Source: Hysterangium stoloniferum (Eukaryota; Basidiomycota; Agaricomycetes; Hysterangiales; Hysterangiaceae). From it: a DNA stretch of 64,000 nucleotides. Shown here piece by piece: positions 13,828-57,505 of the stretch. The stretch spans positions 558,001-622,000 of the forward strand of contig WHVD01000033.1 of the NCBI GenBank assembly GCA_015178975.1, written 5' to 3'. Position 1 is the first letter of the stretch; every line of letters begins with the position of its first letter. Made by a program: the position numbers and the translations under genes. The notes beneath the pieces are model-generated. The model searched no databases. It was not told the DNA's origin and saw only the letters and a program-made list of their open reading frames with translations.

Positions 13828-13931
13828 TAACAATTTTTCCTTTAACTTCCCCTCAAAAAACAAAGAGAATTGAGAAATTGAATTAAAATGTATTTATATC
13901 ACTTACTGTGAAGAGTGGTGGAAGTTCTAAC
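13828..13931. repeat. LTR2-like scrap and first 23 bp of an LTR4
   Basis: TGTTATGTATTTAAC near 13829 resembles the start of LTR2 (15631). At 13909 TGTGAAGAGTGGTGGAAG matches the start of LTR4, which is cut off after 23 bp by element A. No continuation of that LTR4 is found at the other end of A. Confidence 0.5.
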
Positions 13932-15299
13932 TGTGAAGAGTCGATAGATTCTGACCGTTCGATATACGAAGAATAGTGTTTATTCAACTACTATTAGCAG
14001 GTATTGACCGTACAGTACAATACCATAAATTACTAGACAAGCAGTACTAGTAAGAAGACACGCTACGCGTCACAAGAGCAACTGTACAGTTGCTCTTGAC
14101 GGCTAGAATGAAAGAATGAAAGAGTTGACCTTCACGGTACAACTCGTAGCTAGACGTAAAATAGATAATCAACACAAAGCTGAATATCTAGAGTAAAGAA
14201 ATAATAGCGCGAGTCGACTATAATGTCGACTAGCGCAAAGACCTTAGATTGGAACTTGTTACGACTGTGTCGCAACCCTATCAGCCCCGAGGTTATCGCC
14301 ACTTGTCAACGTTTCAAGTCATCCTCTCGGAAACCATCGGCCCCGAAGCTGACGAATGTTTCGCGAAGATCAAACTCCATTTACGCCCACGTCAAATAAC
14401 TCGTATTGTCTGGTCAAACTTTGATACGTCCCCTTTATTATGTTGATCCGTTCAATCTTATGTTTCACATATGTCTATCTATATTTGTAGTCCTCGAACC
14501 ATTTCCTTTTATCGTAATCCCGCTCTCGGTTATCATCGGCCTCCGAACTAATCATAAACTTCCCGTTCCTAGTCAAGCTTATTGTTAATACCGTGTTCCG
14601 CCCTTCTCCCCATTAGTATTTTCCAGACGCCTGTTACTTGTATATGAACCCGCTGTAATTGTAGTTACTATGCAATCAGAATATCGACTCAGAATACCCT
14701 CATACACCTGTATCAGTCTCATACTAAGACTTCCCCCATCCGCCTTCGCGTGCGCTCGCCCACTCCCGGCCCCGACCCCTTGGCCCGACGCCCGACTTGT
14801 CCTTCGATTCCGATCGGTATCACGCCAAAAGGTACTCACTAGGACTAGTCTTCGCCCGCCCGAAATTTAAGGACATCCTACGGATATTTGCGAGGGCGCA
14901 GCCCATAAGCTGAAGCCAAGTCCTTCCGATCGGTCCCTGTCGGCCACCGACATTAGTCAGTTTCCAGTTCTTAACAGAACTCGACCTTCGTGGTTCGAGT
15001 CCAAAGTACGTTAGTATGCAAGAGAATACTACCTTTAAAGGTAGTTGAGACGTTACCCTTGACACCTCTCGCTATTCGACGTCTGGGTCGTTTACGAGGT
15101 GGTGTCTGCTGGGGAAAAGTGTCTATCGTTTTGGCGCCGAGAGTGCCCATACGTATACACAAAGCTTCGAACTACAAAATAAAGGTATGCTCGAAATATA
15201 GAAAGAATATAAAGAAAGAAAATAAAAGATAAATAATAAAGTACTATAATCCAACTATTATTCCTTAGTCCAATTATGCATATATGCATACCCTTTACA
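13932..15299 (-). mobile_element. 3' LTR of element A (LTR1), split by an LTR3
   Basis: The LTR1 sequence covers 13932-14256 and 14982-15299, about 643 bp after removing the nested LTR3 and one TSD copy. This length agrees with the 5' LTR (645 bp). It is preceded on the minus strand by the PPT at 15300-15312. Confidence 0.88.
14257..14976 (+). mobile_element. Solo LTR, family LTR3 (720 bp), inside the 3' LTR of element A
   Basis: It begins TGTTACGACTGTGTCG and ends AGTTCTTAACA, with TSD GAACT at 14252-14256 and 14977-14981. It is closely similar to 59246-59970. It has no coding capacity. Confidence 0.9.
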
Positions 15300-15324: not shown

Positions 15325-18300
15325 CTATACTAGGTGTCGAAGAGCATCTGGGACGCCGCCCCAAGCTTCCTGTGAGGATCCCCCAAGGTCCAAAATGATG
15401 TTTCCCCATCGTTCCCTTTTTACTCTGAAGGATTCGGCTATCCTCGCCCGAGCCAAATCACTAGAATTCCTGTACAAGGAGTCGGCCCATCGTCTGTAGG
15501 CTTTCTCTCTGCAACGAACGACTGCGTGGACACTAACCGGTGGAGCGGAAATCTGCGCGAGAAGAGGAGCATTGGGGAGGGGAAATGAAGACGCGGGCAG
15601 CGGGGCAGGAACGTGTGGCTGCATGGTGGTTGTTATGTATTTCTAAGTTTTTTCCAATTTTTAAACAATTTCCCCTAACAAATTGCAAAAACAAATATTC
15701 AAATGTAATTATATTGCGACGATTAAATTGTACAATATTTGTTTGATTTATCTTGAATTTATAAAATTTATTTTGTATTTTTATCTAATAAATTGAGCAA
15801 ATTATTGAATTTCTACTTTTTATTCTTTTTTGATTAATATGTCGGCGACTCAGCGCTTATTCACAACGCGCGAGTAATCATGTGACATTCACATGATATT
15901 TCAAACTCCGACACTGACAAAACGCGATTTGAAATACTCGCGCATTATCAAGGCGAAATATATATATTTTTATATTATTATAATAAAATATTATATTTAT
16001 AACTAACTAAAAGTAAATATAATAATTATATAATAATATAAAACCGGCCTGGCGTTTATTACACGGCGCGCGGGAAAATCGTCACAACGAGTGACAACCG
16101 TCATAACAGGTGACAGTTGTCACGAGGGCGCGCGACGGTCACAGAGGCGCGCGACGGTCACAGAGGCGCGCGACTGTCACAACGCGTGACAGTCACAAGA
16201 CGCGAAGGGTGTCATGCGCGCGCACAGGCGCGAGAGCATTATGTCATCATATATGCTACTGCAACAAAAACAGGAAACTCTCTGGAACATTCCAGTGGCT
16301 TCCAATGGAACATTAGTTAATAGGTACTAATATTAGATAGAATATTGTAGAATATTCTATAAAATTCTACAATGTTCCATTATGCCAAGAATATTCTATA
16401 GTGTCTTAGAAGTAGTTAGAACCTTCCACAATGCTCTAGAAAATTCTAGAAAATTCTAAATGACATCACTCCTCCCAGAATGACATCATTAAATCTTCTA
16501 GAATCTTCTAAATGTCTCAGACTAAAATGTATATAAGGAGCTCAGCTCCAGCCTTGAAAAAAAATCAATCATATCATCTCATCAACCCACGACATCTGTG
16601 TGTGTCACTGCAGCAAGCAGGCTACTCCACCCCTATCTGGGCAGTTGGACATCTAATTCCACCTCTATCAGAGCTGTTGGAAACCCTTGCCACCTCTATC
16701 AGAGTTGTTGGCCCAATCAGATCCCTTGTCACCTCAATCTGAGCTGTTGACTGATCTGCTGTTCCCCTGTCACCTCAATCTGAGTTGTTGACTTTTGTTC
16801 CCCCTTGCCACTTCTTAATTGAATAGTTGGCTATCTTTTATATATTATTTCCACTTCAGTTAGAGCTGTTGGTTATCAACTAATAATATATAAATAATCT
16901 TATACTATAGTCATCTCTTAATTGAGTATTTGATTAATAGTTTTCTCTACATTGTTATTTGTAGTTTAAGACTTCAGTCACCTCTAGTTGAGTAATTTGA
17001 CTGTTTATTACATTGCAAATAATCCCGTTCCTTTGTTCATTTATTGTGAATCAGTAAAGCATATTCACATAAACAAATACTGAGAATATCCTTGCAGAAT
17101 CCTTAAGACTACATTAAGATCCTGATAAGTTAATATCACAGTAGACCTTGTAGGTTAGTGTAAATAAAGCATATATTAGCCAAATAGTGTTTTATTCTAT
17201 ATCTAATCTTTTGACCCGTTTATAAATATTTTTACTGTTTGACAAATAGTATAAAATATATATAAACTAGCTAGCATTGAAGTTAAATCTAGCTTCAGAA
17301 TCAGTAAATTGTTATTCTTATTTTAGTAGTTGTTATCACAGAAAAAGAACAAGCTTGCACAAGCAGCTCTCAAAACCTTCTTTGCGAAGTTGGGTGCATA
17401 TATTCAAGTAAACTCTTGACTTCAGGGGTTCTAAGTCTATTTAGGCTGCCACTGATTAATATCAAATACTTAAATTATTTTACCTTGCAGTGAATTGAGT
17501 ATTTGCACATTTTGATAGAGCATTGGACTCCTTTTTCGGAAAATAGTATTAAAATAAGGCTAATACATTACAGTGGTCTCTGTGGGAGGCGTCAGGATGA
17601 GGGCCTCGAGTAAATCTACTAAGCCAGCAATAGAGAGGACATTCGCTGAGTCTGGGGGCAGACGGTGAAGCTCCACTATGATGTGCCGGAACATAGAGAG
17701 TTTAATCTCCTGTGCTGCTCGCGCAAAGTTCTTCCCCTCTGCGAGATCCTCGAAGGAGAGATAGAAATCCTCCATTATCTCCAACAATGGAGCCAGACCG
17801 CGACAACCGTTAAGGCTCCCTTGAAGGACCGGTTGCTGAAGTACTGGCACGAGCTGTGATAGCACCCTTCTGACAGGAAACTGTTTGGAAGGGTAGTTGA
17901 CAGCTACTCGCATCCAGAAAGTTGTGGATACGGGCTCAGTGAGGGGAAGCGGGCTGTCGAGGATGGGAATAGGGGATTGTTCTCGGAGAGGAGTGGTGGC
18001 TTTCTGCATCTCCTTCGCCTTTCTGCTTGCCATGGGATCGATGACGTCCGGTGTAGGGGGGTCCAAATCGACATCCATTCACTCTGGTGGAAGGTCCTGG
18101 ATAGGGCTACCCAAGGACATGCAATATGAATACGGAGAGTCGGGAGGGATACCCGGTGACGGTGGAAGTTGGGTCGGTACCAGTATAGCTTTCGGGGAGG
18201 GAGAGAGACGAGGCGCCAGAATCGGGGAAGGTTCACGTTGGGCTGAGGGAGTGTGTGCTGGGTGAAGGATGGGAGGGGGCCTCGACATCCTAAGTGAGGT

Positions 18301-19317
18301 TGGGACCGGTACAGCTTTTGAAGAGGGAGGTAAATGAGGCGTTAGAATCAGGGCTGAGGGAGTGTTTGTAGGGTGAATGATAGGAAGGGGCCTCGACGTT
18401 GGCGAAAGATGTGGGACCAGAATCGTGGAAGGTTCACGTTCCAGTGACTGTTGACTAGGGCGGTGACCCCTCCATACTCTGGATGACGGTCTCCGCGTTT
18501 GTCTTTGGTTGGGGTCGCTGGTTACGAAACGAACTTTAGACGGGAGAAGGAACCTCTCATGGCAATCCTCTCCCAGAGATCGGATGCTATACACACCATT
18601 CCTGTTCTCGTCTTCCTCCTCATCCTCATCTGAGGAAAAATCAATTGGTCCCCTACGGTATTCTTTTTCTCGTTGGGGCAACGTTTGACCGTCCCCTCAG
18701 GTAAGAACTATTCGTTGCAATTTAATGCGTCGAAGTAGCTCCCAGTCGTAAAAGATGGTACCCTCCTTCTCCTTCCAGCTCTTGGATCCCGTCGTCCTAA
18801 TGCAAGGTGTCCCACCCTCACTATCATTGGTCTCCGCGAAGTCGGCCCATTTCTCTCCTGTGGGGGGAAGGATCGGCGCGGAAGCTCTGTTTCCGAATTG
18901 CACTCTGTACTCACGCTGCTGCCACTTGGAGGGGACTCCTTCTCTTGCTCCCCTCGCCTCCTGTTGACTTCTATACTCAGCACGCCTTTCTCTTTTGCGG
19001 GTGAGCCTCCTTGTGTTGTGTTCTTCCATAAACATTTCCTGCTTCCGCATGATAGCAGCGACTTCCTCAGATAACGGTCTGACGGAGGGGCCTAACGGCT
19101 TGCTCCAATCTGTACCGGTATTTCCCCCCGGCTCATCACCAAAGGAGAAGGTCGACAGGGGGGTTGATTCTTGGGTACCCCAATTGCTCTCGACATTGTC
19201 TGTACGAGGCACGCGGGTGATGAATCCCCCGCCGGTCATGGATGTACTGGCTGTCGGGGCTCGCGGGACCTTTTTGAACGTAGGGAGGACTTGCTTGTTT
19301 TGTTGGAAAGGGAGCAT
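15325..19317 (-). pseudogene. ORF3 of element A: unknown sense protein downstream of pol
   Basis: A third gene lies between the chromodomain and the PPT, in the same direction as pol. It starts at ATG 19317, about 350 bp after the pol stop, and ends at 15325, just before the PPT. After removal of the LTR2 insertion (15631-17572) the frame is continuous except for two TGA codons (18697 and 18079), giving about 680 residues. In order: a basic, Ser/Thr-rich N-terminus; a segment with WADFAET, FYDW and RRIKLQ; an acidic run; LGEDCHERFLLP, SDPNQR and RVWRGHRP; a long Pro/Ser-rich, probably disordered region; and a helical C-terminus with LSMFR, LVDLLE and ending WGGVPDALRHLV. Elements C and F carry homologues. 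I recognise no known family. It has no obvious signal peptide or membrane helix, so it does not look like an envelope protein. Nuclear, RNA-binding or integration roles are conceivable but unsupported. Confidence 0.8.
15631..17572 (+). mobile_element. LTR2: 1.94-kb LTR-like element without internal genes
   Basis: It is flanked by TSD GTGGT (15626-15630 and 17573-17577) and has imperfect inverted ends, TGTTATGTATT and AATACATTACA. It contains GC-rich repeated units around GGCGCGCGACGGTCACAGA at about 16120-16200, TTCTAGAA-type palindromes near 16430-16510, and TATAAGGAG near 16532 as a possible core promoter. No protein is encoded. It is either an unusually long solo LTR or a non-autonomous retroelement. 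A truncated copy in opposite orientation lies at 42779-44221. Confidence 0.83.
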
Positions 19318-19421: not shown

Positions 19422-19458
19422 TTTTTTTATATATATTGAATTGAAACTCCGCTCGGTT
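19422..19458 (-). promoter_or_regulatory. Candidate internal promoter of ORF3 (element A)
   Basis: On the minus strand AACCGAGCGGAG (19447-19458) is followed by a TATATATAAAAAAAG stretch (19422-19436), about 105 bp before the ORF3 ATG. Element C has the same 12-nt box, followed by AATATAAAATAC, in the equivalent place (57084-57116). Promoter function is inferred from position and conservation. Confidence 0.45.
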
Positions 19459-19663: not shown

Positions 19664-20224
19664 TTAAATGTTGAACAGCACCTTGTACGCCCTCAGAAGT
19701 GCTGGAGCATTTCTGAGGTCAGTGCTGCTTAACCACGAATCCTCTTCGGGTCCATAACCTTTCCAGTGCACCCTAAATAGCAGACGATTTCGCTGTTTCC
19801 TATGTCCAACAATAGCTTCGACTTCATATTCTTCATGATCTGATTTCAACTCTCTTAGGTTCTCAAGTTGGGGTCTCGGACCTAGCTTGGAAGGAGAGGG
19901 TTGATATTTCCGCAGATGATCCCGATTAATGACTGGATGCATCGGATACTCCGGGGGGATCTTAAGCCTAAATACTTGAGAGTTCAATTTCTCAAGGACC
20001 TCGAATGGTCCAATCCGTCTTTGTATTAGTTTCTTCCCCGTTCCCTTGACTTCCACCAGTTCGAGGGAGTGGGGGTTCACCAATACAAAGTCTCCCTCAG
20101 AGATATCTTCTATAGGTCTTTGCTTCTTGTTATACGCTCGTGCTTGAATCTCTTGGGCTCGAGCGATTGAATCCCGCGCCATCTGCCGATGATTTTCTAG
20201 CTCGAGGATCCATTGGTCAGCCAT
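19664..20224 (-). pseudogene. pol: Integrase C-terminus and chromodomain of element A
   Basis: This is a 186-residue stretch. It contains the helix after the integrase core (WILELENHRQMARDSIARAQE), a basic segment GDFVLVNPHSLELV, an RRIGPFEVLEKLN module of GPY/F type, YPMHPVINRDHLRKY, and a chromodomain with LLFRVHWKGYGPEEDSWL ending ALLRAYKVLFNI. It is in frame with the upstream integrase core apart from a TGA around 20276. Element C carries the same domain at 57207-57430. In chromoviruses this domain directs integration to particular chromatin. Confidence 0.9.
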
Positions 20225-20275
20225 AGGGCTGTCTGATAGTTCTCTAGGAACTCGGGGTTCGTCACCTCCTAGGAC

Positions 20276-20986
20276 TCAAGACATTCCTCTTGGAAGGTAT
20301 CCCATTAATAAGAAGGCCAGGGCGTAGTTTGTGGAACTGTGAACAGTCGAGTTGTATGCGTGAACAACTACCTCAATCCACTGGGACCAGCTTTCCTTAG
20401 CAGAGGCACAATAGGCTCGAGGCATCTGTTCTATGGTTGCATTCATATTCTCCGTTTGCCCATCCATTTGAGGATGATGAGCCGAAGATACCGCAAGGGT
20501 GGTACCATAGATCTTACAGACTTCCCGCCAAAGCCTGCAGGTCCATCTCTTATCCCGGTCACAGATTATTCGAGAGGGCAGTCCGAAGGGGCTTGCTACC
20601 TGTTTGACAAATATTCGTGCGAATCCTTCAGCCGTAAGGTTCGAACAGGTAGGTATTGTAATAGCGTAAGGTGTCAATTTATCAACGGCGACGAAGACTG
20701 CGGAATACGAATCCTTTCCTGAATCGGGTAGTCCAGTGATTAAGTCCATAGAAACTACCTCGAATGGCCTAAAAGGTACGTCAGCCGGTCTGAGGACTCC
20801 TTGACGAGCGGTGCGATTGACTGTGGGTTTTTGGCAGATGTCGCAGGTACACACGTACGACATGCAATCTTGTAGCATTCTTGGCCAAAAGAACTGGTCT
20901 TTCATCAGGTTGAACAACCGCTGGCCTCCGGCGTGTGCTCCATCAAAAGGGTTATCATGTACCAACCTTAGAATCGAGTTAATCAT
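20276..20986 (-). pseudogene. pol: Integrase zinc-binding and catalytic core of element A
   Basis: The segment begins with the HHCC-type zinc-binding module (His in VHDNPFDGAHAGG, then CTCDICQK). The DDE core follows, with acidic residues visible in VSMDLITGLP, RIICDRDKRWT and DGQTENMNATIEQ. The region after the core (NYALAFLLMGYLPRGM) is typical of Ty3/Gypsy integrases. The frame is closed by a TGA after GMS; element C reads on without a stop at this point. Two further TGA codons lie between this part and the RNase H part. The enzyme would insert the cDNA and generate the 5-bp duplications seen throughout the window. Confidence 0.92.
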
Positions 20987-21040
20987 AGTTCTGGGTACAC
21001 AGACTCAACTTTTCCAGTCCGAGTCGCGAAAGTACAGGAG

Positions 21041-22336
21041 TCAGTTTGCTCCCACGAAGTATTGAGAAGGAGTAACAACCGCATTGGGTGAAGGGGTATC
21101 TAGAGCGTAGAGATTCCTGAAAATGGGGTCCTTTGAATAACCCTCTAGAAATTTCTTTATATATCCCTCCTCGATGCTGATTAGTAGCTGAGGATGACGC
21201 AATGTGAAGTCAGACTCGTCTTCCTGGTCGTTCCTTATTGCGTTATGAGAATCCCATTCTGACTGTCGGACCTTTTGAGTTACTCCGAAAGGTTCCATAG
21301 AATCGAGTATGGTAGAGAAGACTGCCTTCTTAGCAGGTTCGTCCTTCCATAGTTTTTCCTCAGTACTCTTGTCCAGAGAGGTCGAGGTGATAGCCTGCAA
21401 ATCATCTCTAATAGGGCTCACGAAGGCTGGTACCCGAGGGAGTCTGGACAGTGGATCCACGTTGCTGTGAACTCTCCCTGCTCGATGCAAAATCTCGAGA
21501 CCTGGAAATGCAGCGTATATCGCCCCCCATGCGGCTAGTCGACGATTAGTGTTCTCATAAGATCTAGCCCATTGCAGAGCTGCATGGTCCGTAATGAGCA
21601 GAACATGTTCACCTTCAATGAAAGGTTGAAAGTGGACTAGTCCCTCCTTTGCTGCTAATGCTTCCCATTCAGTAGCAGAATAGTTACGCTCAGCACTTTT
21701 CAGTGTGCGACTCCAATATGCAATGACCCGTTCAACAGTAACTTCAGTCGCCTCAAAAGTGGATCCCCACGAATCTGACCACTCAATCTCGGGCTGTTTG
21801 GTTTTGTACCGATGAACAAAGGATGGCACATCCTGCGCATGGTCAAAAGCCAACCTGGCTTGGGCATAGATTTTAGTGTCCACTAAGTCTCCTAAAGCCA
21901 TTTTCTGGACTTGTTGGAGGCAACAACCCAAGGCAAAATCCGAAGCGTCCGTATACAATCGGTAGGGCATCCCACTAACTGGATGTCCCAGCACTGGAGC
22001 TGATCCTAATGCGGTTTTAACACCCTCATAAGCTCGGACATGTTCAGCAGTCCACGTCCAGGGTGTTCCCTTTTTTAGGAGCGAGAATAAAGGGGACACC
22101 ATCCATGAATAGAATGGTATATATGCTGAAAAGTAAAGGACCATTCCAAGGAACCGTTGTAGATCAGAAACCTTAGTGGGTGGGGCCAATTCCAATATAG
22201 CGCGAACTTTTTCTTGGTGGGTTGAAAAACCCAGCCTAGATACTTTATGACCCAATAACAATATCGAATTATATCCAATAAAACATTTCTTGGGAGAGAG
22301 TGTGATACCGGCCGAAGCGATAGCGCCAAGCACCTG
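21041..22336 (-). pseudogene. pol: RT thumb/connection and RNase H of element A
   Basis: The real retroelement part begins where the nested LTR6 ends on the minus strand. It carries the end of RT (LSPKKCFIGYNSILLLGHKV, LQRFLGMVLYFSAYIPF) and RNase H (RLYTDASDFALGCCL, VIAYWSRTLKSAERNYSATEWEAL, LLITDHAALQWA), then the spacer to integrase (HRAGRVHSNVDPLSRLPRVP). Codons upstream of 22336 in the same frame are LTR6 sequence and do not belong to the protein. A TGA follows at 21041. RNase H would remove the RNA template during reverse transcription. Confidence 0.9.
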
Positions 22337-22810
22337 TGTGAAGAGTGGCGGAAGTTCTGACCGTTCTATATACGAAGAAATGAGTAGAAGAGGAGGATAT
22401 TGACCTATTCGGTGCAATATAAGGGAAAGTGAGAGAAAGAGCACGAGATGACGAAGGAGTCAACGAGTGCGATGGTTCGAGTGGAGGCCTCGACTATTAC
22501 AGTTCGAGGCCAGAAGTGTTTAGTAGTTCAGATATTGCTACTTATGTAGTAGCTGACACGTTACCCTGATCACCGCTCGTAGTAGACCTAGTTTGTGTCT
22601 TACGAGTGGTGGTTCTTGGGTTAAAGTGTGTCTGAGTTCCAATTGGTGCTGAGTGCACCCACAAGTATACACAATGCTTCGAACTAATGAAATATGCAAT
22701 ATTCGAAGAATATGAAAGATAGAAAAATATGAATAGAATATGTAAAATATAAATAAAATAAAAGGAGTGTTTTACCACAATGAAACTATGGTAAAAGCAT
22801 ACCCTTCACA
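22337..22810. mobile_element. Solo LTR, family LTR6 (474 bp), inside the RT of element A
   Basis: It runs TGTGAAGAGTGGCGG to CATACCCTTCACA, with TSD ACCTG at 22332-22336 and 22811-22815. Removing it joins the RT sequence HLNQV with LGAIASAGITLSPKKC in frame. It matches 4887-5360. Confidence 0.92.
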
Positions 22811-24201
22811 ACCTGATTCAGGTGAAGCAAATGATCATCCCAGTTCTTAGAGAATATGACTATGTCATCGATGTAGACTAAACAAAAAATCCACAAGTAG
22901 GGTGCTAAAACTGTTTGCATGACACACTGAAATGTGGAGGGGCCGTTTCTGAGCCCAAATGGCATCCTTTTAAATTGCCACAGCCCTCTATGGGATCTAA
23001 AGGCTGTTTTGGGCTTATCGTCCTCCAACATTTCTAATTGAGTAAACCCGGCTAGCGCATCGAAAGAAGAAAGAACATTTGACCCCGACAGCGCCTGCAT
23101 AATCTCCGATTGACGTGGTAAAGGGAATTCGTCTGGAACAGTGAGATGATTAAGTTTCCGATAGTCGATGACCACCCGCAGTTTACCATTGCGATATACT
23201 ACAAAGGCTGGCGCTCCCCAGGGGCTTTTAGATGGCTCAATGACACCCTGTTCGAACCAGGTATCCATTTGCTCGTCTATGACTCTCCTATTGGCAGGGG
23301 ACGAAGGGAACATAGGCATGGATATGGGCTGGGCTCCCTCTTTCAAGGGGACAGGGACTCTACATTCCACTTGCCCTAACCGTCCGTCGACTCCGAAAGC
23401 CTTAACGTTCTCAGTCAAAACTGATCTGAGACGTGGCAGGACCTCCGTTGGTATATCCGGTCCCAAATTGACGGACTTGTGAAGATCCTCTGAGGCAAAT
23501 TTCTCATTATCAGCCACTGCAGCCGTCTTAGGACCAGGCAGTTCGAAATCGTCCGCAATCTCTGGTTCAACAGGTGGCTTAGGCCTTTCTGAGGTGACTT
23601 GACGGTCCTCCTCAAGTTGAGAGAGACTTTCGATAAGGTGTGCGATCTTGGTCGTGCCTGCTACCATTAAACATTTCTCCTCGAGTGACCTGGGCTTGTG
23701 AGCCCAACGAGCGGGGTCATGAATTATCCCTATTGTCTCCCCTCGTCGGATAGTCTTAGGGGTTAGCGATGGATTGGCTAAAGGTACTGCCGCACTATTC
23801 CTTGAAATTGCCGTGATTGGTGTGGCTAATATCGAACCGTCCTCATTTTGCAGTACAATTCCTTCAACAACCCATTCCTCGCCCTTTAGATCTTCAACGA
23901 AAATAGGCACTAGTCTGGCTGACTCTGGATCAATAGTGCAATCCTCCAAGGCTCGCGCAACTCTTTCAGTACGCACACCTTTATCGGGGAGAGAGGTGAG
24001 TTTGGATGACTCCTTCTCATGCTTCCCGAAAGGGGCCTTATTGACGGTGAAGGTCAAAGGTTGAGGTTCCTTAGAAGAACTGGCTGGAATAAAACCCTGT
24101 CGTCCCAGGAGAATAAGTCTAGATCCCAACGGCTGATCTCTTAGAGTACCAATTTCATAATTAATATGGAAGTCTTCTCCTAAAAGAATTGGCACCATCA
24201 T
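22811..24201 (-). pseudogene. pol: Protease end and reverse transcriptase of element A
   Basis: The stretch starts with the end of the protease region (VPILLGEDFHINYEIG). After a linker it contains RT motifs in the usual order: WFEQGVIEPSKSPWGAPAFVV, LRVVIDYRKLN, PLPRQSEIMQALSG, SSFDALAGFTQLEM, KTAFRSHRGLWQFKRMPFGL and the catalytic LVYIDDIVIFS. The YIDD box and the preceding FDA Asp are intact. The frame is shifted by one base relative to the upstream protease part, apparently through loss of one G near 24205. It would copy element RNA into cDNA in the cytoplasmic particle. Confidence 0.93.
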
Positions 24202-24542
24202 TCTCTAACGACATAGGTTTCTGCCGCGAACTTCAGTAACGTTCCACTGTCGTCCTCCAGGTAAATGGGAATATTAACATATCCGATAACCTTAGCGTTA
24301 CCTGTGAGCTGGATTAGACGTAACTTGAGTCCTTGTTTCAACTTATATCTGCCCTGCAGCTCCTTGTAGAATTCCTCCGATATAAGGGAAAGATCCGCTC
24401 CCGTGTCCATTCGAATTTTAACGCATTCGGGTGAATCGGGAGTTCCTACATGACCGAAAACATGGAGCACTGCAACTCCTATGCTAGAGTAACCACTGGG
24501 AGGATCCCGTTTTCGATAAAGGATCGTAGTATCCTCCTTCAT
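24198..24542 (-). pseudogene. pol: Aspartic protease of element A
   Basis: The fold is recognised from IKIRMDTGADLSLISEEFYKEL, with the catalytic D-T-G triad, then LKLRLIQLTGNAKVIGYVNIPIYLED. Elements B and C have D-A-G at the same place. The segment is in frame with the upstream Gag part but separated from it by TGA codons, and it ends by the frameshift near 24205. The protease would cut the Gag-Pol precursor into its parts. Confidence 0.88.
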
Positions 24543-24929
24543 CAGACGACTGGGACGAGGGTATTGGATTCAAGGCCTCTTACTTTCCTTGCGCAGGGAC
24601 AAGATTACGTTCCTGCGTTCACTTCGGCAAGGAACATGCTTCGAAGGGGAATCCAATACTGGATCATCGTCGCTGTACTCCGAATCCGAGTTCTCGTACG
24701 GTAGTAAATCGGGGGGGTTCCCGGGATCAAACGGGAACGTGTCAGCATCAGCTCCAGGCGAACAGAGCGAATTCGAACTGATTTGTTCGTGAGAATCTCC
24801 AGTCTCACAGTAGTCCTCGGTCAGGCCTTCAAGGTCCTGCCGATGAACACTCAGCCAGTCTCCTTTTTCGAAGAAATCTGCGGCGAGTATGGATACGTAA
24901 GCTTCAGACAGAAGAGCTTCACCAGTCGT

Positions 24930-25655
24930 TCAATTTTCCTCCCTCACTAATTTGTCTTCGACATGGGGAGAATAAACGGAAACAAAAGTCAATTCGTCAT
25001 CAGAGTTATTTACTTGTCCTTGTATAGATAGTCCATGAACCGCTTCATATAACCTTTGCTCCTCAGCTTCCTCCGACATATCCTGTGCGGAGCATTTGTT
25101 GATAGAGACATAATGAGACATTTTGCCAGCTTGAGGGCAGTCTATCTTAAAATGCTCCGGACTTCCGCATATCCAACATTCCTTGGTGGGTTTGACCGAA
25201 CTCCTCTTGTTACTCCTCTCGAAGAACATTTTTCCGTGACGCTTTCCCTGTTTTGGATCAGCGATGTCCGGAACAGTCCTTCTCGTCGAGCCTCTCTCGT
25301 TAGTCTCACTAACGAGAATATGGTTAGGTGAAGAGGAGTCGCCGGTGACTCTAAAATCCAATTCTTGAGCCTCTGATAACATTACGCGCGGTTTCTGGAA
25401 CCTGTAACGTTCCCGGTGTGTTTGGACCCAAGCGTTAATCAGAGCTTCTTGCAGGTTATTAGCATAAGTCTGTAAACTCATGATATCATCGATGGGTTGT
25501 CCTTGAAGAAGGTAGAGCCATTCCGTAGGCAGTGTGAGAATGAGTCTGCATGTCTCATCCTCTCTGTCCTGGTGGAACCCGTACAGGAAATGATAAAGTT
25601 TAACTCTCCATTGGATATAGTGGACGGGTGTCTCACGATCGTGACCAGCCTGTCA
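24930..25655 (-). pseudogene. gag: Gag C-terminus with zinc knuckle (element A)
   Basis: The segment continues the main Gag frame after a single TGA (25653-25655). It holds TLPTEWLYLLQGQPIDDI, a helix (MSLQTYANNLQEALINAWVQ), a basic region, and a CCHC knuckle CWICGSPEHFKIDC (C-x2-C-x4-H-x4-C) that would bind element RNA. Element B has the same arrangement, including a TGA at the same position. A second TGA ends the stretch at 24930, where a continuing frame into the protease is still visible. Gag and Pol therefore seem to have been one reading frame. Confidence 0.87.
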
Positions 25656-27562
25656 AAATTTCATAGCTTCCCATTCTAAGGCTAAGGATTCATACCAACG
25701 AGTTCCAAGCAATCCTTCGACGATACCCCAAAGAAACGACCCATGAGATTGACTGAATTCAGTACAATGCTCACGGTCTAAGGTGCTCCACCAGACCTTA
25801 GCGTGCCCCTTGAGTCGTCTTGGCAGAGCAACTCCTAAGATCGCACTCATAGAGTCTGATATCTCCGCGAGACTCATGATATCCATAATATAGTCCAGGG
25901 CTTCGGATTGAGCTCCATCGTATTCAGGGAGATCAGACCATTTGATCTTAAGGTCGTTGGTGTTAAGAGTGACCTTCTTGTCCTTAGGTAAGTCATCAAT
26001 AAGCGCGCTAGCTCGAGACCGCATCGGAGTTCGAAAAGGGGTATTAGGCACTCCATTGTGGTGCTCCCCACGTCCTGAGTTCCCTCCCCGGTCTGAAGTA
26101 TTCGAACTCCCAGATGAATCACTAGGGGTCCTCCTGATGGCAAGAAAGGGTTTGAAGCGATCGGTAGAGAATGGCGGGGACTGTCTGGATTACGCGATCC
26201 TCGACCAGCAACTGGGCCAGCTATGCCCTCAGTGCATGCCGTGGAGAAGGACGGTCGACCCTTGTTGGCGACTGATCAGTTTCTGAGAGTGGTCACTTCA
26301 TTCCTGAAGTTAGGGCTGTTGGAGACTCCCTCAAATGCGACGCGAGAGCGGTGATCTCCCTGGAGAGACGTTAGGCCCGGTTCCATCGTGATTTGTCTCT
26401 CGATCTCCGTCGCGTTCAGAAGTCGACACGGCTGGGGTTGATGGAAGGGAGCGCAGACCTCAATCCTCTTCTCCTGAAGGCGTTCTATCACTTCCGTCCT
26501 CAAATCCAGTGGAAAATCCTCCAATATTATGGGACGGTTGAGAGAATGCAGAAAACGAGTATCAGGGGACCCGTTTAAGTTGCGAACGAACGAATTGGTC
26601 GTGGAGATAGGCGAATCAGGGACCTGGATCGAGTCGTTATAGGGGAGGAGTACCTCTAAAACCATCTTATCAAGTCTTCTTTGGTTTCGCTTCAACCGAC
26701 CTCTTAAAGTGAGGTATGCCAGCGATAGATTTGGCGTGACTCCATTGAGAGACTCCTCCAACATACGGATGTACATGTACTGGTAGTCAACCTTAGGCAC
26801 AACATGATCTCCGCTAAGCAGGACATGCAGGATCTGCAACACATCATCGTGCGTACGAAGTGCTTCAAGGAACAGAGAAAACACCTCCCGCTTGAGAATT
26901 CTTCTTCCTCCTTCCATAGTGGTCGTCACCTCGTTCGACCATTCAGGAATCGATTGGGTCAAATCCTCAAGGTTCCCTGGTCGCGTGAATAAATCCCGCG
27001 CCGATAAAATCGCTTGATAACGCCCTAACCAGACTGCTACAGTCTCCGGTAGAATAGGGTAATCCATACTGTACTCCTCCACGAAGGGGGTAACCTGATC
27101 CTCAAGGATTTGATCGGTGTAGTACATATCCCATTTGTAGTCGATGGGCTGGGCGTAAACCATATGACCTCCGAGGAACTGCTTAAGGATGACCTGTCTC
27201 GGAGGGAATCTGAGAACGGGCGTGGGTGCTCGATTAGGCTCAACGTTAACTCCAGGGGTGTCCAACTGCTCGAATGATGAGCGTTCCTCAGGTGGATCGG
27301 GGGGAATGTTCATTGACGATCCAGCTACTACTCCGGGGGAATCCTCTGGAGGAGGTCATCCTTGAGGAAGCTGGGGAATGTTCGTAGATGATCCAGCTAC
27401 TACTCCGGGGGAATCCTCCGGAGGAGCTGATCCTTGAAAAGTCGACGAAGACTTCCTCAGGGTAACGTTACGGGGTGGTTCTAGGTTAGAAGATTTTTGA
27501 CGAGGCATGGAGCTACTCAGCGTTGATGAAGGCCTAGGCGTTTGATTCTTGCCCATAGTCAT
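25653..27562 (-). pseudogene. gag: Gag N-terminal and capsid region of element A
   Basis: The start ATG at 27562 (MTMGKNQTPR) lies 77 bp inside the 5' LTR; element D begins almost identically (MTTGKNQTPR). A Ser/Pro-rich N-terminus is followed by FPPRQVILKQFLGGHMVYAQPI, an all-helical region, and the capsid-like ALDYIMDIMSLAEISDSMSAILGVALPRRL and LLGTRWYESLALEWEAM segments. A stop at 27356, one frameshift between about 26276 and 26051, and the TGA at 25653 break it. A 72-bp tandem duplication near 27314-27430, absent from D, extends the N-terminus. The product would build the virus-like particle. Confidence 0.87.
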
Positions 27563-27638: not shown

Positions 27639-28283
27639 TGTGAAGAGTCGATAGATTCTGACCGTTCGATATACGAAGAATAGTGTTTATTCAACTACTA
27701 TTAGCAGGTATTGACCGTACAGTACAATACTGTAGAGTACTAGACAAGCTGTACTAGTAAGAAGACACACTACGCGTCACAAGAGCAACTGTACAGTTGC
27801 TCTTGACGGCTAGAATGAAAGAATGAAAGAGTTGACCTTCACGGTATAACTCGTAGCTAGATGTAAAATAGATAATCAATGTGAAGCTGAATATCTAGAG
27901 TAAAGAAATAATAGCGCGAGTCGACTATAATGTCGACTAGCGCAAAGACCTTAGATTGGAACTCGACCTTCGCGGTTCGAGTCCAAAGTACGTTAGTACA
28001 CAAGAGAATACTACCTTTAAAGGTAGTTGAGACGTTACCCTTGACACCTCTCACTATTCGACGTCTGGGTCGTTTACGAGGTGGTGTCTGCTGGGTAAAA
28101 GTTGTCTATCCCTTTTGGCGCCAAGAGTGCCCATACATATACACAAAGCTTTGAACTACAAAATAAAGGTGTGCTCGAAATATAGAAAGAATATAAAGAA
28201 AGAAAATAAAAGATAAATAATAAAGTACTATAATCCAACTATTATTCCTTAGTCCAATTATGCATATATGCATACCCTTTACA
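27639..28283 (-). mobile_element. 5' LTR of element A (LTR1, 645 bp)
   Basis: On the minus strand it begins TGTAAAGGGTATGC and ends CTCTTCACA, followed by the PBS and the Gag start. It contains ATGCATATATGCAT at its sense start, CTACCTTTAAAGGTAG, and a perfect 26-bp palindrome (27780-27805). The right flank is element B's pol, without a TSD matching the left end of A. Confidence 0.9.
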
Positions 28284-37334: not shown

Positions 37335-37335
37335 T

Positions 37336-44221: not shown

Positions 44222-44855
44222 TGTGAAGAGTGGTAGAAGTTCTAACCGTTCTATATACGAAGAATATCAACCATTTAGGTACAATACCACGATGTATTGA
44301 CTGTCTAAGTCTAATACAGACCGAACGCGTATTGACTACTTAGTTCAATATGGTAGAGAGAAGTAGCTATCTAAAGTAAGGTAGATAGCTAGAACAAATA
44401 AGTAGAATCGACTGTTAAGTACGATTCTGGACGACTGCTCGAGTGCAAGTAGAGTAGTTAGAGAGTCGAATAATAGAGTAGCATGGATGTAGTCCACGCA
44501 GGTTGAGATAAGGATTGAGTTTCGACTGGTACAGTTCGAAACTCAGATTGAATGAGTAGCTAAAGCCCGTCTATGACGGTCGAGACCATACACCAATCAC
44601 AACTTACAGGACACTAACAGGTGTCTGAGTAAGTTGTGGTTGCGGTGTAAAAAGTGTCTGAGTTCTAAACTACGGGCGCTAGAATACATAAGTCTGGCGT
44701 GTGTGCGCCCACAAGAGTCGATGTACTGCATACATAGGTCGTCGAACTAATTATAGATATACATAATAAAAGAGAGAAAATAGAAATAATAAAGGAGATA
44801 TAGTACGAGCTCATCCGACTATATTTCCTGAGTGTATTTCGCCATACCTCTCACA
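44222..44855 (-). mobile_element. 3' LTR of element F (LTR4, 634 bp)
   Basis: On the minus strand it begins TGTGAGAGGTATGGCG right after the PPT CCTGGGGGGCAC and ends CACTCTTCACA. It links the LTR4 family to elements with ORF3. Confidence 0.83.
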
Positions 44856-44879: not shown

Positions 44880-47248
44880 GTCAAAAAAGATGTCGAAGGA
44901 CGCTTGGAACTCCTCCCCATGCATCCTGCAATGAACCCCCAAGGTGTAGGATAGCGTTGCCCCAGGTGAGACGCTTGGCACGAAAGGAAAGAGCAATGTC
45001 CTCCCGCTTCGAAGCATCATTGGCAGATGTCAACCCATCCAGTTTCTGGATCGATGAGACCCAACGACCGTAGGCCTTCTGGTGCATTCGAATTATGGCA
45101 CGAACGCGATCAGCGGAAGTGTCAGTAATATGGGTGATGAGAGGGGGTCGAGGGTGTAGTGATGGCGGGGTAGGGGTGATGAGCGGTGTGGAGCTCATGT
45201 CTCCCCCAGGGGGGATTCCTCTTGAGGTGTCTGAATCCGGCAACAGTTGCTCCAACAAGTCAACGAGGTCCACTGCAGAGTGGGTTGGTGTGTGGTCAGG
45301 AAGAACACAAGAAGAGTTGACAAGTAAGGACCGAAACATGGAGAGTTCCACCCGTTCGATATCCTCCGCTAAACGCAGCTGTTCCTTAGGGTCGTTGACG
45401 CATAGATAAAATGCACTCATGCAGTCCGACAATGTGAGAGACCCGCTATACCCCTGGATATGCCCTTTAAGAAGGGGGTGCTGCAGGGTTGGTCCCAGTC
45501 ACGTTAATGTGCGTCCCACGGTGAAGATGTCGGAGGATTAATTAATGGACACGCGCATCCAACTTGACTGGAAGGGATGGGAGGGGAGAGGACGGCTGCG
45601 GCGGGGGACTGCGAATGGGATGGGTCAGGGGGGAGTCAATGACAAGGGGCTTGTTGGCCTGAGTATCAGTTGTCCATTTCCCTTTTGCTTTTTCACTTAA
45701 GGGGGGAGGCTCCTCCAAGACTTCCATTGCCGGGGGGGATTCTTTGGAGACGTCTGTGGCTGAGAGAGGCGCCTCGAGGACTTCCTCCATAGGTGTTGCA
45801 AGAACTTCCAGGATAGGGTGATCAATATCCATTAATGTATCGTTAGGATGCTGAATGGGGCTTCCCAGAGAAACACAAGGGGAGTAGGGAGAGGCGGGCG
45901 GTGGACTCTGCGTTGTCAAGGAAGTGAGAGGAATGTTAGACACCACAGGGACTAAAGGCGTCGGAGTAGAGTGGGAGGCGACGAGAGGGTCAGGTGATGT
46001 GCGGAGGGGTGAGATTGGCTGCGGTGCTGGAGAAGGCTTGGGTATGGATGAGGACGGTGATATAAGGGAATGTCCTGCGAAGGGGAGGGGTAGTGGTATA
46101 GGGGGAAGAGAAGGCAGCTCAGCGGATGGTACAAGACTTCCCGGTAACTCTGAAAAGGGTTGTAAAGGGTATGCATATATGCATACCTGGACTAAGGAAT
46201 AATAGCTGGATTATAGTACTTTATTATTTACCTTTTATTTTCTTTCTTTATATTCTTTCTATATTTCAAGCACACCTTGATTTTGTAGTTCGAAGCTTTG
46301 TGTATACGTATGGGCGCTCTCGGTGCCAAAAGAGACATACAACTTTTACCCAGCAGACACCACCTCGTAAACGACCCAGACGTCGAATAGCGAGAGGTGT
46401 CAAGGGTAACGTTTCAACTACCTTTAAAGGTAGTATTCTCTTGCATACTAACGTACTTTGGACTCGAACCGCGAAGGTCGAGTTCCAATCTAAGGTCTTT
46501 GGGCTAGTCGACATTATAGTCGACTCGCGCTATTATTTCTTTACTCTAGATATTCAGCTTCGCATTGATTATCTATTTTACGTCTAGCTACGAGTTGTAC
46601 CATGAAGGTCAACTCTTTCATTCTTGCATTCTAGCCGTCAAGAGCAACTGTACAGTTGCTCTTGTGACGCATAGCGTGTCTTCTTACTAGTACAGCTTGT
46701 CTAGTAATCTACGGTATTGTACTGTACGGTCAATATCTGCTAATAGTAGTTGAATAGACACTATTCTTCGTATATCGAACGGTCAGAATCTATCGACTGT
46801 TCACAAGGGTGTAAAGCGCTGTAATGTGGGTACGGAAGAGACCAGTGGAGGTGGAGGGAGATGAGAGGAACTGGATAGGGTTGCAGAGTCTGCTGGACGA
46901 TACCCTCTCCAAACTCTGATGGAAGTTGGTAGCTTTCGTCGTTGGTTAGGATCACTCATGAAGAGGTGAATGTTGTCAGGGAGTAGGAAACCTTCATGGC
47001 AGTCAGCACCGAGGTACTTGCTGTCGTAGGAGGGGTAGCGAGATTGGTCGTCCTCCGAGTCAGATGAAAGATCACTGGGCCCCATCCGGTAGGTCTGTTC
47101 CTGAGGTCCACGTTGTGAAGGGGGTCTGCGAGGTAGTGCAACTCCATCTCCACGTCACAATGCAATGCTTTGTAATTTGATCCTTCGTACTTTGTCCCAA
47201 TCGTAGAAGGTGACCCCATCTTTTCCTTTCCTACTTTTTTGTCCTACA
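44880..47248 (-). pseudogene. ORF3 of element F (C-terminal three quarters)
   Basis: This is a homologue of the ORF3 of A and C, minus strand. The C-terminus (44881-45432) has VELSMFRSLLV, AVDLVDLLEQLL, RIHQ/RMHQKAYGRWVSSIQK-like helices and ends GNAILHLGGSLQDAWGGVPSVLRHLF. Upstream lie WMRVSIN, the Pro/Ser-rich region (45542-46150), and after a nested LTR1 the conserved GADCHEGFLLP, SDPNQR and RVWRGYRP (46806-47085). Stops and at least one frameshift near 45540 break it. The N-terminus is cut at 47248 by a CACTG-type element inside the sequence equivalent to C's 56268. Compared with A, the C-terminal helical part contains an extra, more complete block, which shows the full architecture of the protein. 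Confidence 0.8.
46161..46805 (+). mobile_element. Solo LTR, family LTR1 (645 bp), in ORF3 of element F
   Basis: It runs TGTAAAGGGTATGC to CGACTGTTCACA on the plus strand with TSD AGGGT at 46156-46160 and 46806-46810. The 26-bp palindrome (46639-46664) is perfect. Confidence 0.9.
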
Positions 47249-55254: not shown

Positions 55255-57012
55255 GTGAAAGGGAGAGGGCAGCTGCAGTGGGGGGCTGCGAATGGGGTGG
55301 GCCAGGGGAGGGTCAATGACAAGGGGCTCGTCGGCCTGAATATCAGCTTTTCACTTCCCTTTTGCTTTTTCACTTAAGGGGGGAGGCTCCTCGAGGACTT
55401 CCATTGCCAGGGGGGGTTCCTTGGAGGCATCTGTGACTGAGAGAGGCACCTCGAGGACTTCCTCCATAGGCATTGCGAGAGCTTCTGAGATAGGGTGATC
55501 AACATCCATTAATGTAGCGTTAGGATATTGAATGGGGCTTCCCAGAGAAACACAAGGGGAGTAGGGAGAGGTGGGCAGTGGACTCTGCACTGTTGAGGAA
55601 ATAAGGGGAGTGTCTGACACTGCAGGGAGCAATGGTGTCGGAGTAGAGTGGGAGGTGACGAGAGGGTCAGGTGACGTGCGGAGGGGTGAGATCGGCCACA
55701 GTGCTGGAGAAGGCTTGGGTGCGGGTGAGGATGGTGATATAAGGGAATGCCCCACGAAGGGGAGGGGTAATGGTATAGGGGGAAGAGAAGGCAGGTCGGT
55801 GGATGGTACAAGACCTCCCGGTAACTCTGAAAAGGGTGTAAAGCACTGTAATGGGGGTACGGAAGAGATCAGCGGAGGTGGGGGGAGGTGAGTGGAGCTG
55901 GGTGGCATCGCAGAGTCGGCTGGACAATACCCCCTCCAAACTCTGATGGAAGTCGGTAGCTTTCATCGTTGGTTAGGATCACTCGTGAAGAAGTGAATGT
56001 TGTCAGGGAGTAGGAAACCTTCATGGCAGTCAGCACCGAGGTACTTGCTGTTGTAGGTGGGGTAGCGCGATTGGTCGTCCTCCGAGTCAGATGAAAGATC
56101 ACTGGGCCCCATCTGGTAGGTCCGTTCCTGAGGTCCACATTGTGAAGGGGGTCTGGGAGGTAGTGCAACTCCATCCCCATGTTGCAATGCAATGCTTTGT
56201 AATTTGATCCTTCGTATTTTGTCCCAATCGTAGAAGGTGACCCCATCTTTTCCTTTCCTACTTTTCTGCCCTACACTCCGAACACATGGCATGCCCCCGT
56301 CGCTGCAATCTGTTTCAGCGAAATCCATCCATTTATGACCCGAAGGGGGAGCAATGTTTGAAGGATTGTCGTGCCCTTCCATTCTCCTCCATTCCTGCCG
56401 TATCCGCCTTGAAGGGACATTATCCCTAGCCCCCATCCTCCGCTGTCCTTCCAAGTACTCCTCTCTCCTCTTCCATTTAAGCATTTTCAATTCCTCCTGG
56501 ACCTGCACAGAGAAAGCCTCGGACTGCAGTTTCTTTTTGATCTCCTCTTTGGTAGAAGGGAAAATACTACGAGAAGGTGGTGGGGTTTTGCTCCATGTTC
56601 CCGAGGGAGCCCCCCAAGTATTAGAGGACCATGGTGCAGCTTTTGAAACGGAGTCCATCTGCATAGGATTCGTGGACCATGAGGTCTCCTCCACGTGCTC
56701 GACAGTTTCTGTTCGAGGTGATGGGGCAGAAGGAACTGTAGTTTGAGGTCAAGGTATTCTTTTAAAATTGGGAAATTAGGGTCTTGGAAGAGGAGCGTAT
56801 GGAGTAAAGGCGGTTCCGTTCCCCGAGTTGGTGGACGTTCCCACGATGTTGCCCTGCGCAGCAGAGGGTATTGGCAAAGGCGTTCCAGAATTACTCATGG
56901 AGTGCTCAACTTGTTCAGTACGAGATGGCGTGGTAGAGGTATTAATAGGTTGAGGTCGCGGTATTCTTTTGAAGTTGGGGAACTTGGGTTTGGGTTGTTG
57001 CTCCTGCGACAT
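55255..57012 (-). pseudogene. ORF3 of element C (N-terminal two thirds)
   Basis: It starts at ATG 57012 (MSQEQQPKPKFPNFKRIPRP). It contains an EEIKKKLQSEAFSVQVQEEL helix, HKWMDFAETDCSDGGMPCVR, FYDWDKIRRIKLQSIAL, an acidic segment, GADCHEGFLLP, SDPNQR and, in the same frame after a TGA at 55963, IRVWRG and the Pro/Ser-rich part. The TGA stands where F has CGA. In the N-terminus FPNFKRIP occurs twice about 240 bp apart (near 56985 and 56765), so this copy has an internal duplication, with stops in the second unit. The C-terminal third is missing; the homology ends at about 55255 against the HMG fragment. Confidence 0.8.
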
Positions 57013-57083: not shown

Positions 57084-57116
57084 GTATTTTATATTAATTT
57101 CAAGCTCCGCTCGGTT
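57084..57116 (-). promoter_or_regulatory. Candidate internal promoter of ORF3 (element C)
   Basis: On the minus strand AACCGAGCGGAG (57105-57116) is followed by AATATAAAATAC (57084-57095), about 75 bp before ATG 57012. The 12-nt box is identical to that of element A at 19447-19458. Confidence 0.45.
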
Positions 57117-57206: not shown

Positions 57207-57505
57207 TTAAATTCGATAAATAGTCTTGTAAGCTCTAAGAAGAGCGGGAGCATTACGAAGGTCATTGCCGTTTAACCAAGTGTCCTCCTCCGGTCCATAT
57301 CCTTTCCATCGAACCTGGAAAAGGAGTCGATTTCGATGCTTTTTGTGCCCTACTATAGCTTCTACTTCATACTCCTCGTTGTTACGATTGAGTTCTCGAG
57401 GGTTCTCGAGTAGCTCCCTGGATCCGAATTCCTTAGGGGGTGGTACTTTTTCAGATGGTCTCGATTAATCACTGGATGTAATTGATATTCCGAGGGAATG
57501 CGGAG
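57207..57505 (-). pseudogene. pol: Chromodomain of element C
   Basis: After a TGA at the start of the segment the frame reads LRIPSEYQLHPVINRDHLKK; a frameshift near 57430 follows. The chromodomain continues in another frame (EEYEVEAIVGHKKHRNRLL, WKGYGPEEDTWLNGNDL, ALLRAYKTIYRI) up to TAA at 57207-57209. It is closely related to the domain of element A (19664-20224). Confidence 0.82.

What the first reader, a model, noticed from the sequence alone, without database searches (positions are those of the whole stretch)
15325..19317. ORF3: an unrecognised sense gene between pol and the 3' LTR of chromodomain Ty3 elements
Seen: A (15325-19317), F (44880-47248) and C (55255-57012) all encode a minus-strand protein after the chromodomain. 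Motifs shared by A with C and/or F are W(A/M)DFAET, FYDW, RRIKLQ, G(E/A)DCHE.FLLP, SDPNQR, RVWRG and a C-terminus WGGVP..LRHL, ending just before the PPT. The copies differ strongly in the Pro-rich parts but keep these blocks, which suggests selection on a protein. Known: extra genes at this place in retroelements are often env-like. Here no signal peptide or membrane helix is evident, so another role must be considered. I cannot assign a family.
Basis: partly seen in the sequence, partly recalled or inferred. Interest (0 to 1): 0.86.

Follow-up and report, generated by a model that had tools for sequence, protein, structure and literature searches.

The report
Third gene in fungal chromodomain retrotransposons
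A family of jumping genes in a mushroom-relative genome carries, besides the usual two genes, a third gene of no known protein family that selection has kept intact and that seems to have its own switch, so it probably helps the element in a way not yet worked out.

Summary
Window copies A, F and C are broken remnants of one protein family between chromodomain and 3' LTR. Their genome (111 Mb; most likely Hysterangium stoloniferum) holds well over a hundred copies, some intact: C-type 826-828 aa, A-type 681 aa, 43% identical. Between two diverged intact C-type copies dN/dS is 0.17-0.19 in the blocks and 0.41 in the Pro-rich linker; CpG-aware neutral simulations never reach the observed pN/pS. 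No Pfam, PDB or gag similarity was found; the only relative found is one Hysterangium gene model. Hydropathy shows no signal peptide or membrane helix. New: a conserved module, CCGAGCGGAGYTTSAAWTYAATATA, with its AATATA 82-124 nt before the ORF3 ATG in both types (497 genomic sites, 0 for the reversed control; 81 of 100 listed sites precede an ORF3 match, 0 follow one). It reads like a TATA core promoter. Best reading: a non-envelope accessory gene acquired before the A/C split and transcribed from an internal promoter; its basic, partly helical product probably regulates the element's own RNA or chromatin. The gene is solid, the promoter likely, the function inferred. Additional ORFs of unknown function are on record in fungal Gypsy elements: a new variant of a known kind.

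The parts
15325..19317 (-). ORF3 copy A (A-type). Pieces 19317-18700, 18696-18082, 18078-~17571, then ~15626-15328; two in-frame stops and one insertion
   Evidence: intact A-type copies elsewhere are 681 aa with the same ATG and LRHLV end
15626..17571 (.). insertion inside ORF3 copy A (limits approximate); 16110-17572 is 89% identical to 42779-44183 in inverted orientation
19432..19456 (-). promoter-like module CCGAGCGGAG...AATATA upstream of ORF3 A (AATATA 120 nt before the ATG)
19667..20275 (-). end of A pol: integrase SH3-like domain and chromodomain (PF24626, PF00385)
20279..27355 (-). A gag-pol: gag N-terminal region, CCHC knuckle (24933-25652), RT (22789-24204), RNase H (21044-22459), integrase (20279-21004); interrupted and frameshifted
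13932..15299 (-). LTR-A on the 3' side of ORF3 A, interrupted by a repeat at 14257-14976
27639..28283 (-). LTR-A on the 5' side; 22 of 643 compared positions differ from the 3' copy; the flanking 5-mers do not match as a target duplication
44881..47245 (-). ORF3 copy F (C-type), 5' truncated, stop at 47155-47157, solo LTR inserted
46161..46805 (+). solo LTR-A inserted in ORF3 copy F, orientation opposite to the gene
44222..44855 (-). LTR-C directly downstream of ORF3 F
55261..57012 (-). ORF3 copy C (C-type), ATG at 57012, four in-frame stops, 3' truncated at about 55261
57090..57114 (-). promoter-like module upstream of ORF3 C
57210..57464 (-). chromodomain of element C
   Evidence: PF00385, E=7.7e-13

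Best explanation
ORF3 is a genuine third gene of at least two Ty3 chromovirus subfamilies of one basidiomycete genome. SHOWN: it follows the chromodomain in the sense orientation, is intact in a number of copies, evolves under purifying selection, and is preceded in both subfamilies by a conserved 25-bp TATA-containing module and a pyrimidine-rich leader. It was most simply present before the A/C split. INFERRED, likely: Pol II starts a separate short mRNA at this internal module, so ORF3 is made independently of the LTR-driven gag-pol RNA. INFERRED, weaker: the product is a soluble protein (pI 8.6-9.2, conserved basic helix with NLS-like KRKRR/RKRERR clusters, Pro-rich linker, helical C-terminal domain ending in a helical hairpin) that works in the nucleus as a self-acting accessory factor. 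That could be export or packaging of the element's own RNA, as CERV does for Cer1, or counteracting host silencing of the element, as VANC does for VANDAL DNA transposons.
For: Genome copies: 146 C-core matches (996 candidates), 151 A-type (739), 150 C-terminal (952), all capped lists. Intact ORFs from ATG to the conserved end: L009, L010, L011 (826 aa), L013 (828), L031-L033, L035, L036 (681); L012 (820) and L034 (677) lack the last few residues. These regions were picked for long open frames. Selection. Chromodomain end 65% (L009/L034) against ORF3 43-44%, and 93.5% against 77% for L009/L013, fitting descent together. Module: 497 sites against 0 for the reversed control; 81 of 100 listed sites have a listed ORF3 match downstream within 4.5 kb, 0 upstream. 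A/C leader similarity: 0 of 2000 shuffles reach it for L009, L010, L012, and 6 of 2000 for L013. The last 100 bp differ at 6 of 92 non-CpG sites against 54 of 280 non-CpG fourfold sites, P=0.003. Pol-to-ATG distances 194, 199, 255 and 346 nt keep no reading-frame relation, against a pol fusion. No membrane segment. Basic helix and C-terminal hairpin in AF2.
Against: No transcript or protein data. The one host promoter examined (histone H3) has a pyrimidine-rich leader but no TATAWA within 160 bp. The LTRs examined do not carry the module, so there is no sign of one trans-factor acting on both. C-type copies share an AG a few nt before the ATG, so a spliced mRNA is possible. C-terminal pN/pS is 1.03, 1.24 and 0.61 between close A-type pairs. 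The leader part at -194..-100 is not clearly slower than neutral (10 of 82, P=0.19). AF2 models are weak (mean pLDDT 58 and 46), so the fold is unproven. CpG decay is a sign of silencing, not of escape from it.
Confidence: 0.5

Rival explanations
1. ORF3 is a divergent env-like gene: the element is a fungal errantivirus-like provirus whose ORF3 makes a fusion or surface protein.
For: Position between pol and the 3' LTR is where env genes sit; one rotifer LTR lineage has a captured env-like gene (PMC5408684, abstract).
Against: No hydrophobic N-terminus (KD-11 maximum -0.86 in C-type, 0.90 in A-type) and no membrane helix (KD-19 maximum 0.92 in C; 1.73 in A in an amphipathic stretch with acidic residues), no CxxC (one protein of each type). 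No Pfam or PDB Env match.
Confidence: 0.04
2. ORF3 is a structural (Gag-like or particle-associated) protein, e.g. a duplicated or captured capsid/matrix piece that joins the particle.
For: Helical C-terminal domain, basic regions, Pro-rich linker. The Hysterangium gene model fuses ORF3 to a Gag-like tail, but this looks like a gene-prediction join.
Against: hhalign of ORF3 against this element's gag N-terminal region gives 0.1% probability (only 3 gag pieces, capsid part not included); a zinc knuckle is already in gag and no C-x(2-4)-C-x(3-5)-H pattern is in ORF3.
Confidence: 0.2
3. The conserved leader is not a promoter but an RNA element: 3' end of an intron (spliced ORF3 mRNA), an IRES-like or packaging signal.
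For: Pyrimidine-rich tract and a CAG shortly before the ATG in the C-type copies read; Cer1 CERV is made from a spliced mRNA (PMC10309623 abstract).
Against: The part shared by A and C is the AT-rich TATA block, not an acceptor. A-type copies L034 and L035 lack the CTACAG found in other A-type copies.
Confidence: 0.25
4. A host gene or passenger was captured once and hitchhikes without use to the element.
For: Its origin is unknown; captured domains occur in LTR elements (PMC9289625, seen in listings only).
Against: Purifying selection between diverged element lineages and intact frames in a number of copies do not fit an unused passenger; no host homologue found.
Confidence: 0.06

Closest known systems
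Additional ORFs in fungal chromodomain Gypsy elements (Novikova et al. 2010, PMC2864245; section 5 read in full, and passages)
   Same: Fungal Gypsy/chromovirus survey whose Figure 3 legend marks 'add. [quoted passage not shown]
   Different: The section read describes no sequence, selection, copy number or promoter for it, and the figure itself is not held; whether that ORF is related to this one could not be tested
ORF3s of bdelloid rotifer LTR retrotransposons (PMC5408684, abstract)
   Same: Third ORF besides gag and pol, often not env
   Different: Those are identifiable (GDSL esterase/lipase, DEDDy exonuclease, paramyxovirus-like env); this one matches no family
Retand POL-3'LTR ORFs with the TRP28 domain in plants (PMC11963269, abstract)
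   Same: Extra coding region between pol and the 3' LTR, possible regulatory role
   Different: Antisense and in non-chromovirus plant elements; ORF3 here is sense and in chromoviruses
CERV of Cer1, C. elegans (PMC10309623, abstract)
   Same: A non-Env extra protein of an LTR retrotransposon, proposed analogue of function (RNA export)
   Different: Made from a spliced mRNA; no sequence comparison was made here
Foamy virus internal promoter and its accessory genes (PMC3185757, passages)
   Same: Downstream accessory genes driven by an internal promoter
   Different: Animal retrovirus with env; the promoter lies inside env; here the LTRs do not share the internal module
VANC anti-silencing proteins of Arabidopsis VANDAL transposons (PMC10398659 and PMC5735166, search listing with start of abstract only)
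   Same: Element-encoded protein that acts on silencing; proposed analogue of function
   Different: DNA transposons (recalled); sequence-specific, whereas no clear motif array was seen in these LTRs

Membership tests
Ty3/Gypsy chromovirus (the element) | RT and RNase H upstream of integrase, chromodomain at the integrase C-terminus | tested here: met
   RVT_1, RT_RNaseH, Integrase_H2C2, rve, SH3_Tf2-1, Chromo in order in A and C
Ty3/Gypsy chromovirus (the element) | Gag with CCHC knuckle and flanking LTRs | tested here: met
   zf-CCHC in A piece 24933-25652; LTR-A on both sides, 22 of 643 positions differ, although flanking 5-mers do not match
Envelope-like protein (ORF3) | signal peptide and transmembrane helix | tested here: not met
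   hydropathy of L009 and L032 ORF3; no dedicated predictor was available
Envelope-like protein (ORF3) | match to a known Env family | tested here: not met
   no Pfam family for seven ORF3 pieces and one intact protein except one sub-threshold hit, PYRIN E=0.064
Gag-derived protein (ORF3) | profile similarity to gag | tested here: not met
   hhalign probability 0.1%, against the N-terminal gag region only
Rotifer-type enzymatic ORF3 (GDSL, DEDDy) | match to the enzyme families | tested here: not met
   no Pfam match
Foamy-virus-type internal-promoter accessory gene (works like) | own promoter between pol and 3' LTR | tested here: inconclusive
   conserved TATA module; no RNA data
Foamy-virus-type internal-promoter accessory gene (works like) | target site shared by internal promoter and LTR | tested here: not met
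   module no closer to the four LTR sequences examined than to shuffles
CERV-like RNA export factor (works like) | nuclear protein needed for genomic RNA export | not testable with these tools
   only NLS-like basic clusters seen
VANC-like anti-silencing protein (works like) | clustered target motifs in non-coding parts of the element | tested here: inconclusive
   no single 7-mer over-represented against Markov resamples in three LTRs; total repeated 7- and 8-mers exceed resamples in LTR-A (0 of 300), in LTR-C of F for 8-mers (3 of 300) but not 7-mers (27 of 300), and not in LTR-C of B

The most novel reading that the evidence does not exclude
Fungal chromoviruses have evolved a retrovirus-like two-promoter layout: the LTR drives gag-pol, and a conserved internal TATA promoter drives a third gene whose product, of a family without known relatives, counteracts host methylation-based silencing or exports the element's RNA, and so allowed hundreds of copies to spread in a genome that mutates CpG sites heavily.
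Probability: 0.2. Interest if true: 0.75.

Novelty: new variant of a known kind. Interest (0 to 1): 0.52.

Why it matters
Fungal Gypsy elements are usually described with one or two ORFs (PMC2864245, PMC3248453, parts seen). A third gene that is selectively kept, perhaps separately transcribed, and has no known relatives would show that chromoviruses can acquire retrovirus-like regulatory genes without an envelope. The system is testable because intact copies and a defined upstream module exist in one genome. It also warns that annotated fungal 'hypothetical proteins' such as BU17DRAFT_95923 can be pieces of such genes.

Tried and rejected
Rejected: env (no membrane segments). Gag duplication (N-terminal gag only). 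Pol-ORF3 fusion or read-through (no fixed frame between pol stop and ATG). Telomere-directed insertion, which I suspected because a number of copies sit 2-8 kb inside contig starts: the one such contig end read, C45, begins inside pol, so I take these as assembly breaks in a repeat. One trans-factor acting on the LTR and the leader (module absent from LTRs examined). VANC-like motif arrays (no clear signal).

Led nowhere: full-length protein search (8000 candidates scored, none at E<=0.001; the query carried one extra leading residue), C-terminal region search (none of 2012 candidates at E<=10), IMG/VR scan (none of 599 stretches), PDB searches (best E 0.65 and 0.056, not credible). Integrase outside the last 110 codons could not be compared because of frameshifts. 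AF2 of the central part is uninformative (mean pLDDT 45.6). Foldseek was never accepted by the busy machine, so no structural comparison was made. One host promoter (H3) as control is too few. Paper searches behind 'no description found': (0 papers); they cover open-licence PMC only.
Full report
WHAT WAS CHECKED. Pieces of A, C and F match each other with E=1e-32, 2e-23 and 1e-17. Each window copy is broken. A has two in-frame stops and a 1.9 kb insertion; F has lost its 5' part, has one stop in the piece checked and carries an inverted solo LTR; C has four in-frame stops and has lost its C-terminus.

THE GENOME. The window is G000:C257:558001-622000 of a 111 Mb assembly in 554 contigs. The single hit of the A-type central block in 5.8 billion proteins (1 of 229 candidates) is BU17DRAFT_95923 of Hysterangium stoloniferum, 85% identical over 89% of the 161-residue query region. 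The same protein maps back to G000:C554 at 99% over residues 96-293 and 291-414, so the genome is most likely that species or a very close one. The gene model is a chimera: ORF3 up to the VWRG block, then a Gag-like tail (the tail's label is my reading).

COPIES. Searches returned 146 matches from 996 candidates for the C-type core, 151 from 739 for the A-type middle, 150 from 952 for the C-type C-terminus and 101 from 1138 for the Hysterangium variant. The lists are capped near 150, or 100, scored candidates, so these are lower bounds. By my count of the rows listed, 29 A-type copies have an open stop-to-stop frame of at least 700 aa with no stop in the match; not all need reach the true C-terminus. 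I then read 20 C-type and 6 A-type regions picked for long open frames. ORF3 runs from the homologous ATG to the conserved end in four of the 20 C-type regions, L009, L010, L011 (826 aa) and L013 (828), and in five of the six A-type ones, L031, L032, L033, L035, L036 (681 aa); L012 (820) and L034 (677) stop a few residues early. The other C-type regions are interrupted or incomplete. L009 and L011 are nearly identical, and L030 and L036 are the same place. A- and C-type proteins are 43% identical over 664 aligned columns.

SELECTION. NG86 dN/dS for L009 against L013 (dS 0.46): N-basic 0.19, central 0.17, linker 0.41, C-terminal 0.19, whole 0.26. CpG transitions run 3 to 17 times above other transitions in seven pairs, so I simulated neutral change with a 30:5:1 CpG-transition:transition:transversion bias. 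Neutral pN/pS medians are 0.73-0.76, and 0 of 200 simulations reach the observed 0.21-0.47 in any region. The L012/L009 pair agrees in three of four regions (0 of 200); its N-basic part is weaker (10 of 200). Close A-type copies (L032/L034) are low in three regions (2, 1 and 7 of 200) but not in the C-terminal domain (0.99; 162 of 200); that domain gives 1.03, 1.24 and 0.61 in three A-type pairs. A versus C is saturated at synonymous sites. Choosing intact copies may lower the ratio slightly. The chromodomain end is more constrained (pN/pS 0.09 for L009/L013).

DESCENT. For L009/L034 the chromodomain end is 65% identical and ORF3 43-44%; for L009/L013, 93.5% and 77%. Both parts diverge in step, which fits one acquisition before the A/C split and joint descent. 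Few sequences were compared, and no tree was built.

A CONSERVED LEADER. Between the pol stop and the ORF3 ATG (194 nt in L009, L011, L013; 199 in L012; 255 in L034; 346 in window A) lies CCGAGCGGAG + YTTSAAWTYAATATA, with AATATA 82-124 nt before the ATG in the 12 copies read. A/C local alignment scores (A = L032) are 57, 65 and 69 for L009, L010 and L012, reached by 0 of 2000 shuffles of either kind; L013 gives 46, reached by 6 of 2000 composition and 4 of 2000 first-order shuffles (a smaller run is). In the window the decamer occurs twice, both times in front of ORF3. In the genome the 25-mer has 497 sites with up to 3 mismatches and 0 for the reversed control. Of the 100 listed sites that I transcribed, 81 have a listed ORF3 match downstream on the same strand within 4.5 kb and 0 have one upstream; the ORF3 lists are truncated and transcribed by hand, so the 19 misses are not proof of absence. 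The last 100 bp change more slowly than neutral sites: 6 of 92 against 54 of 280, P=0.003 (L009/L013); the part before that does not differ clearly (10 of 82, P=0.19). The 60 nt before the ATG are 63-75% pyrimidine. A TATA box, then a pyrimidine-rich leader, then an ATG is what I would expect of a fungal core promoter (recalled knowledge). The one host promoter looked at, of a histone H3, has the pyrimidine-rich leader (0.70) but no TATAWA. The pol-to-ORF3 distances keep no reading frame. A splice acceptor cannot be excluded in C-type copies but is not shared with A.

THE PROTEIN. pI 9.15 (C) and 8.55 (A), 12-14% proline, no signal-peptide-like start and no membrane helix by hydropathy (L009 and L032). 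The C-type N-terminus repeats a PxFPNFKRIPRPQ-like stretch that occurs once in A. AF2 on window pieces gives an all-helical C-terminal part whose last 75 residues form two long helices at pLDDT about 69-81 (mean of the model 58), and a long basic helix (residues 67-104 of the C piece, about 61-81) in an otherwise unmodelled central part (mean 46). Pfam, PDB and gag comparisons give nothing usable. F's C-terminal piece has a sub-threshold PYRIN hit (E=0.064), which I take as chance.

MECHANISM. Shown: a third gene, selected, with a conserved upstream module. Likely: its own transcript. Inferred: a nuclear accessory factor. Precedents for such factors without an envelope are CERV of Cer1, needed for export of the element's RNA (PMC10309623, abstract), and VANC anti-silencing proteins (PMC10398659, PMC5735166, listing). 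Foamy viruses show the two-promoter layout (PMC3185757, passages). These are analogies of function, not membership; no sequence relation was tested.

PRIOR KNOWLEDGE. Novikova et al. 2010 mark an additional ORF of unknown function in a figure of fungal elements (PMC2864245, section 5 read). Muszewska et al. 2011, in the passages seen, describe fungal LTR elements as gag plus pol, with extra domains in some complex, multiply inserted ones (PMC3248453). Passages of the Laccaria TE paper gave nothing on ORFs (PMC3411680). The paper reporting the Hysterangium genome mentions Gypsy abundance in the passages seen, nothing on ORFs (PMC7550596). I found no description of this protein in searches, which cover open-licence papers only.

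VERDICT. Real, selected and unassigned: a new variant of a known kind (accessory ORFs of LTR retrotransposons), with a testable internal-promoter hypothesis.

Noticed in passing
window 48600-54400: A 10-bp-period minisatellite array of about 4.5 kb with inverted halves (48648-50822 against 52167-54380, 88.7%) flanked by three copies of a ~680-bp repeat; the adjacent repetitive stretch 47992-48699 is open in all three minus-strand frames.
   Followed up: no
window 4194-4840, 10832-11478, 46159-46805, 37335-37974, 38845-39484: Further copies of the 647-bp LTR-A or a close relative (94-97% for the first three, about 80-82% for the last two, which form an inverted pair about 870 bp apart).
   Followed up: no
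window 54400-55250: GC-rich island (57% in the 2-kb bin) with long overlapping ORFs on both strands, joined to the truncated ORF3 copy C.
   Followed up: no
L009-L036, ORF3 region; lists: Copies decay mainly by CpG transitions, and stops inside the listed copies are mostly TGA, as expected from CGA; this points to methylation of the elements.
   Followed up: partly
L013: In this diverged C-type copy ORF3 is open over 828 aa while the adjacent chromodomain has two in-frame stops.
   Followed up: no
window 13920-13931 and 28284-28295: The two LTRs of element A lack a matching target-site duplication and its 3' side abuts a sequence like an LTR-C end, so A may be a recombinant or a rearranged nested insertion.
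   Followed up: partly
P0001 (BU17DRAFT_95923, Hysterangium stoloniferum): Annotated 'hypothetical protein' is a chimera of ORF3 and a Gag-like tail.
   Followed up: yes
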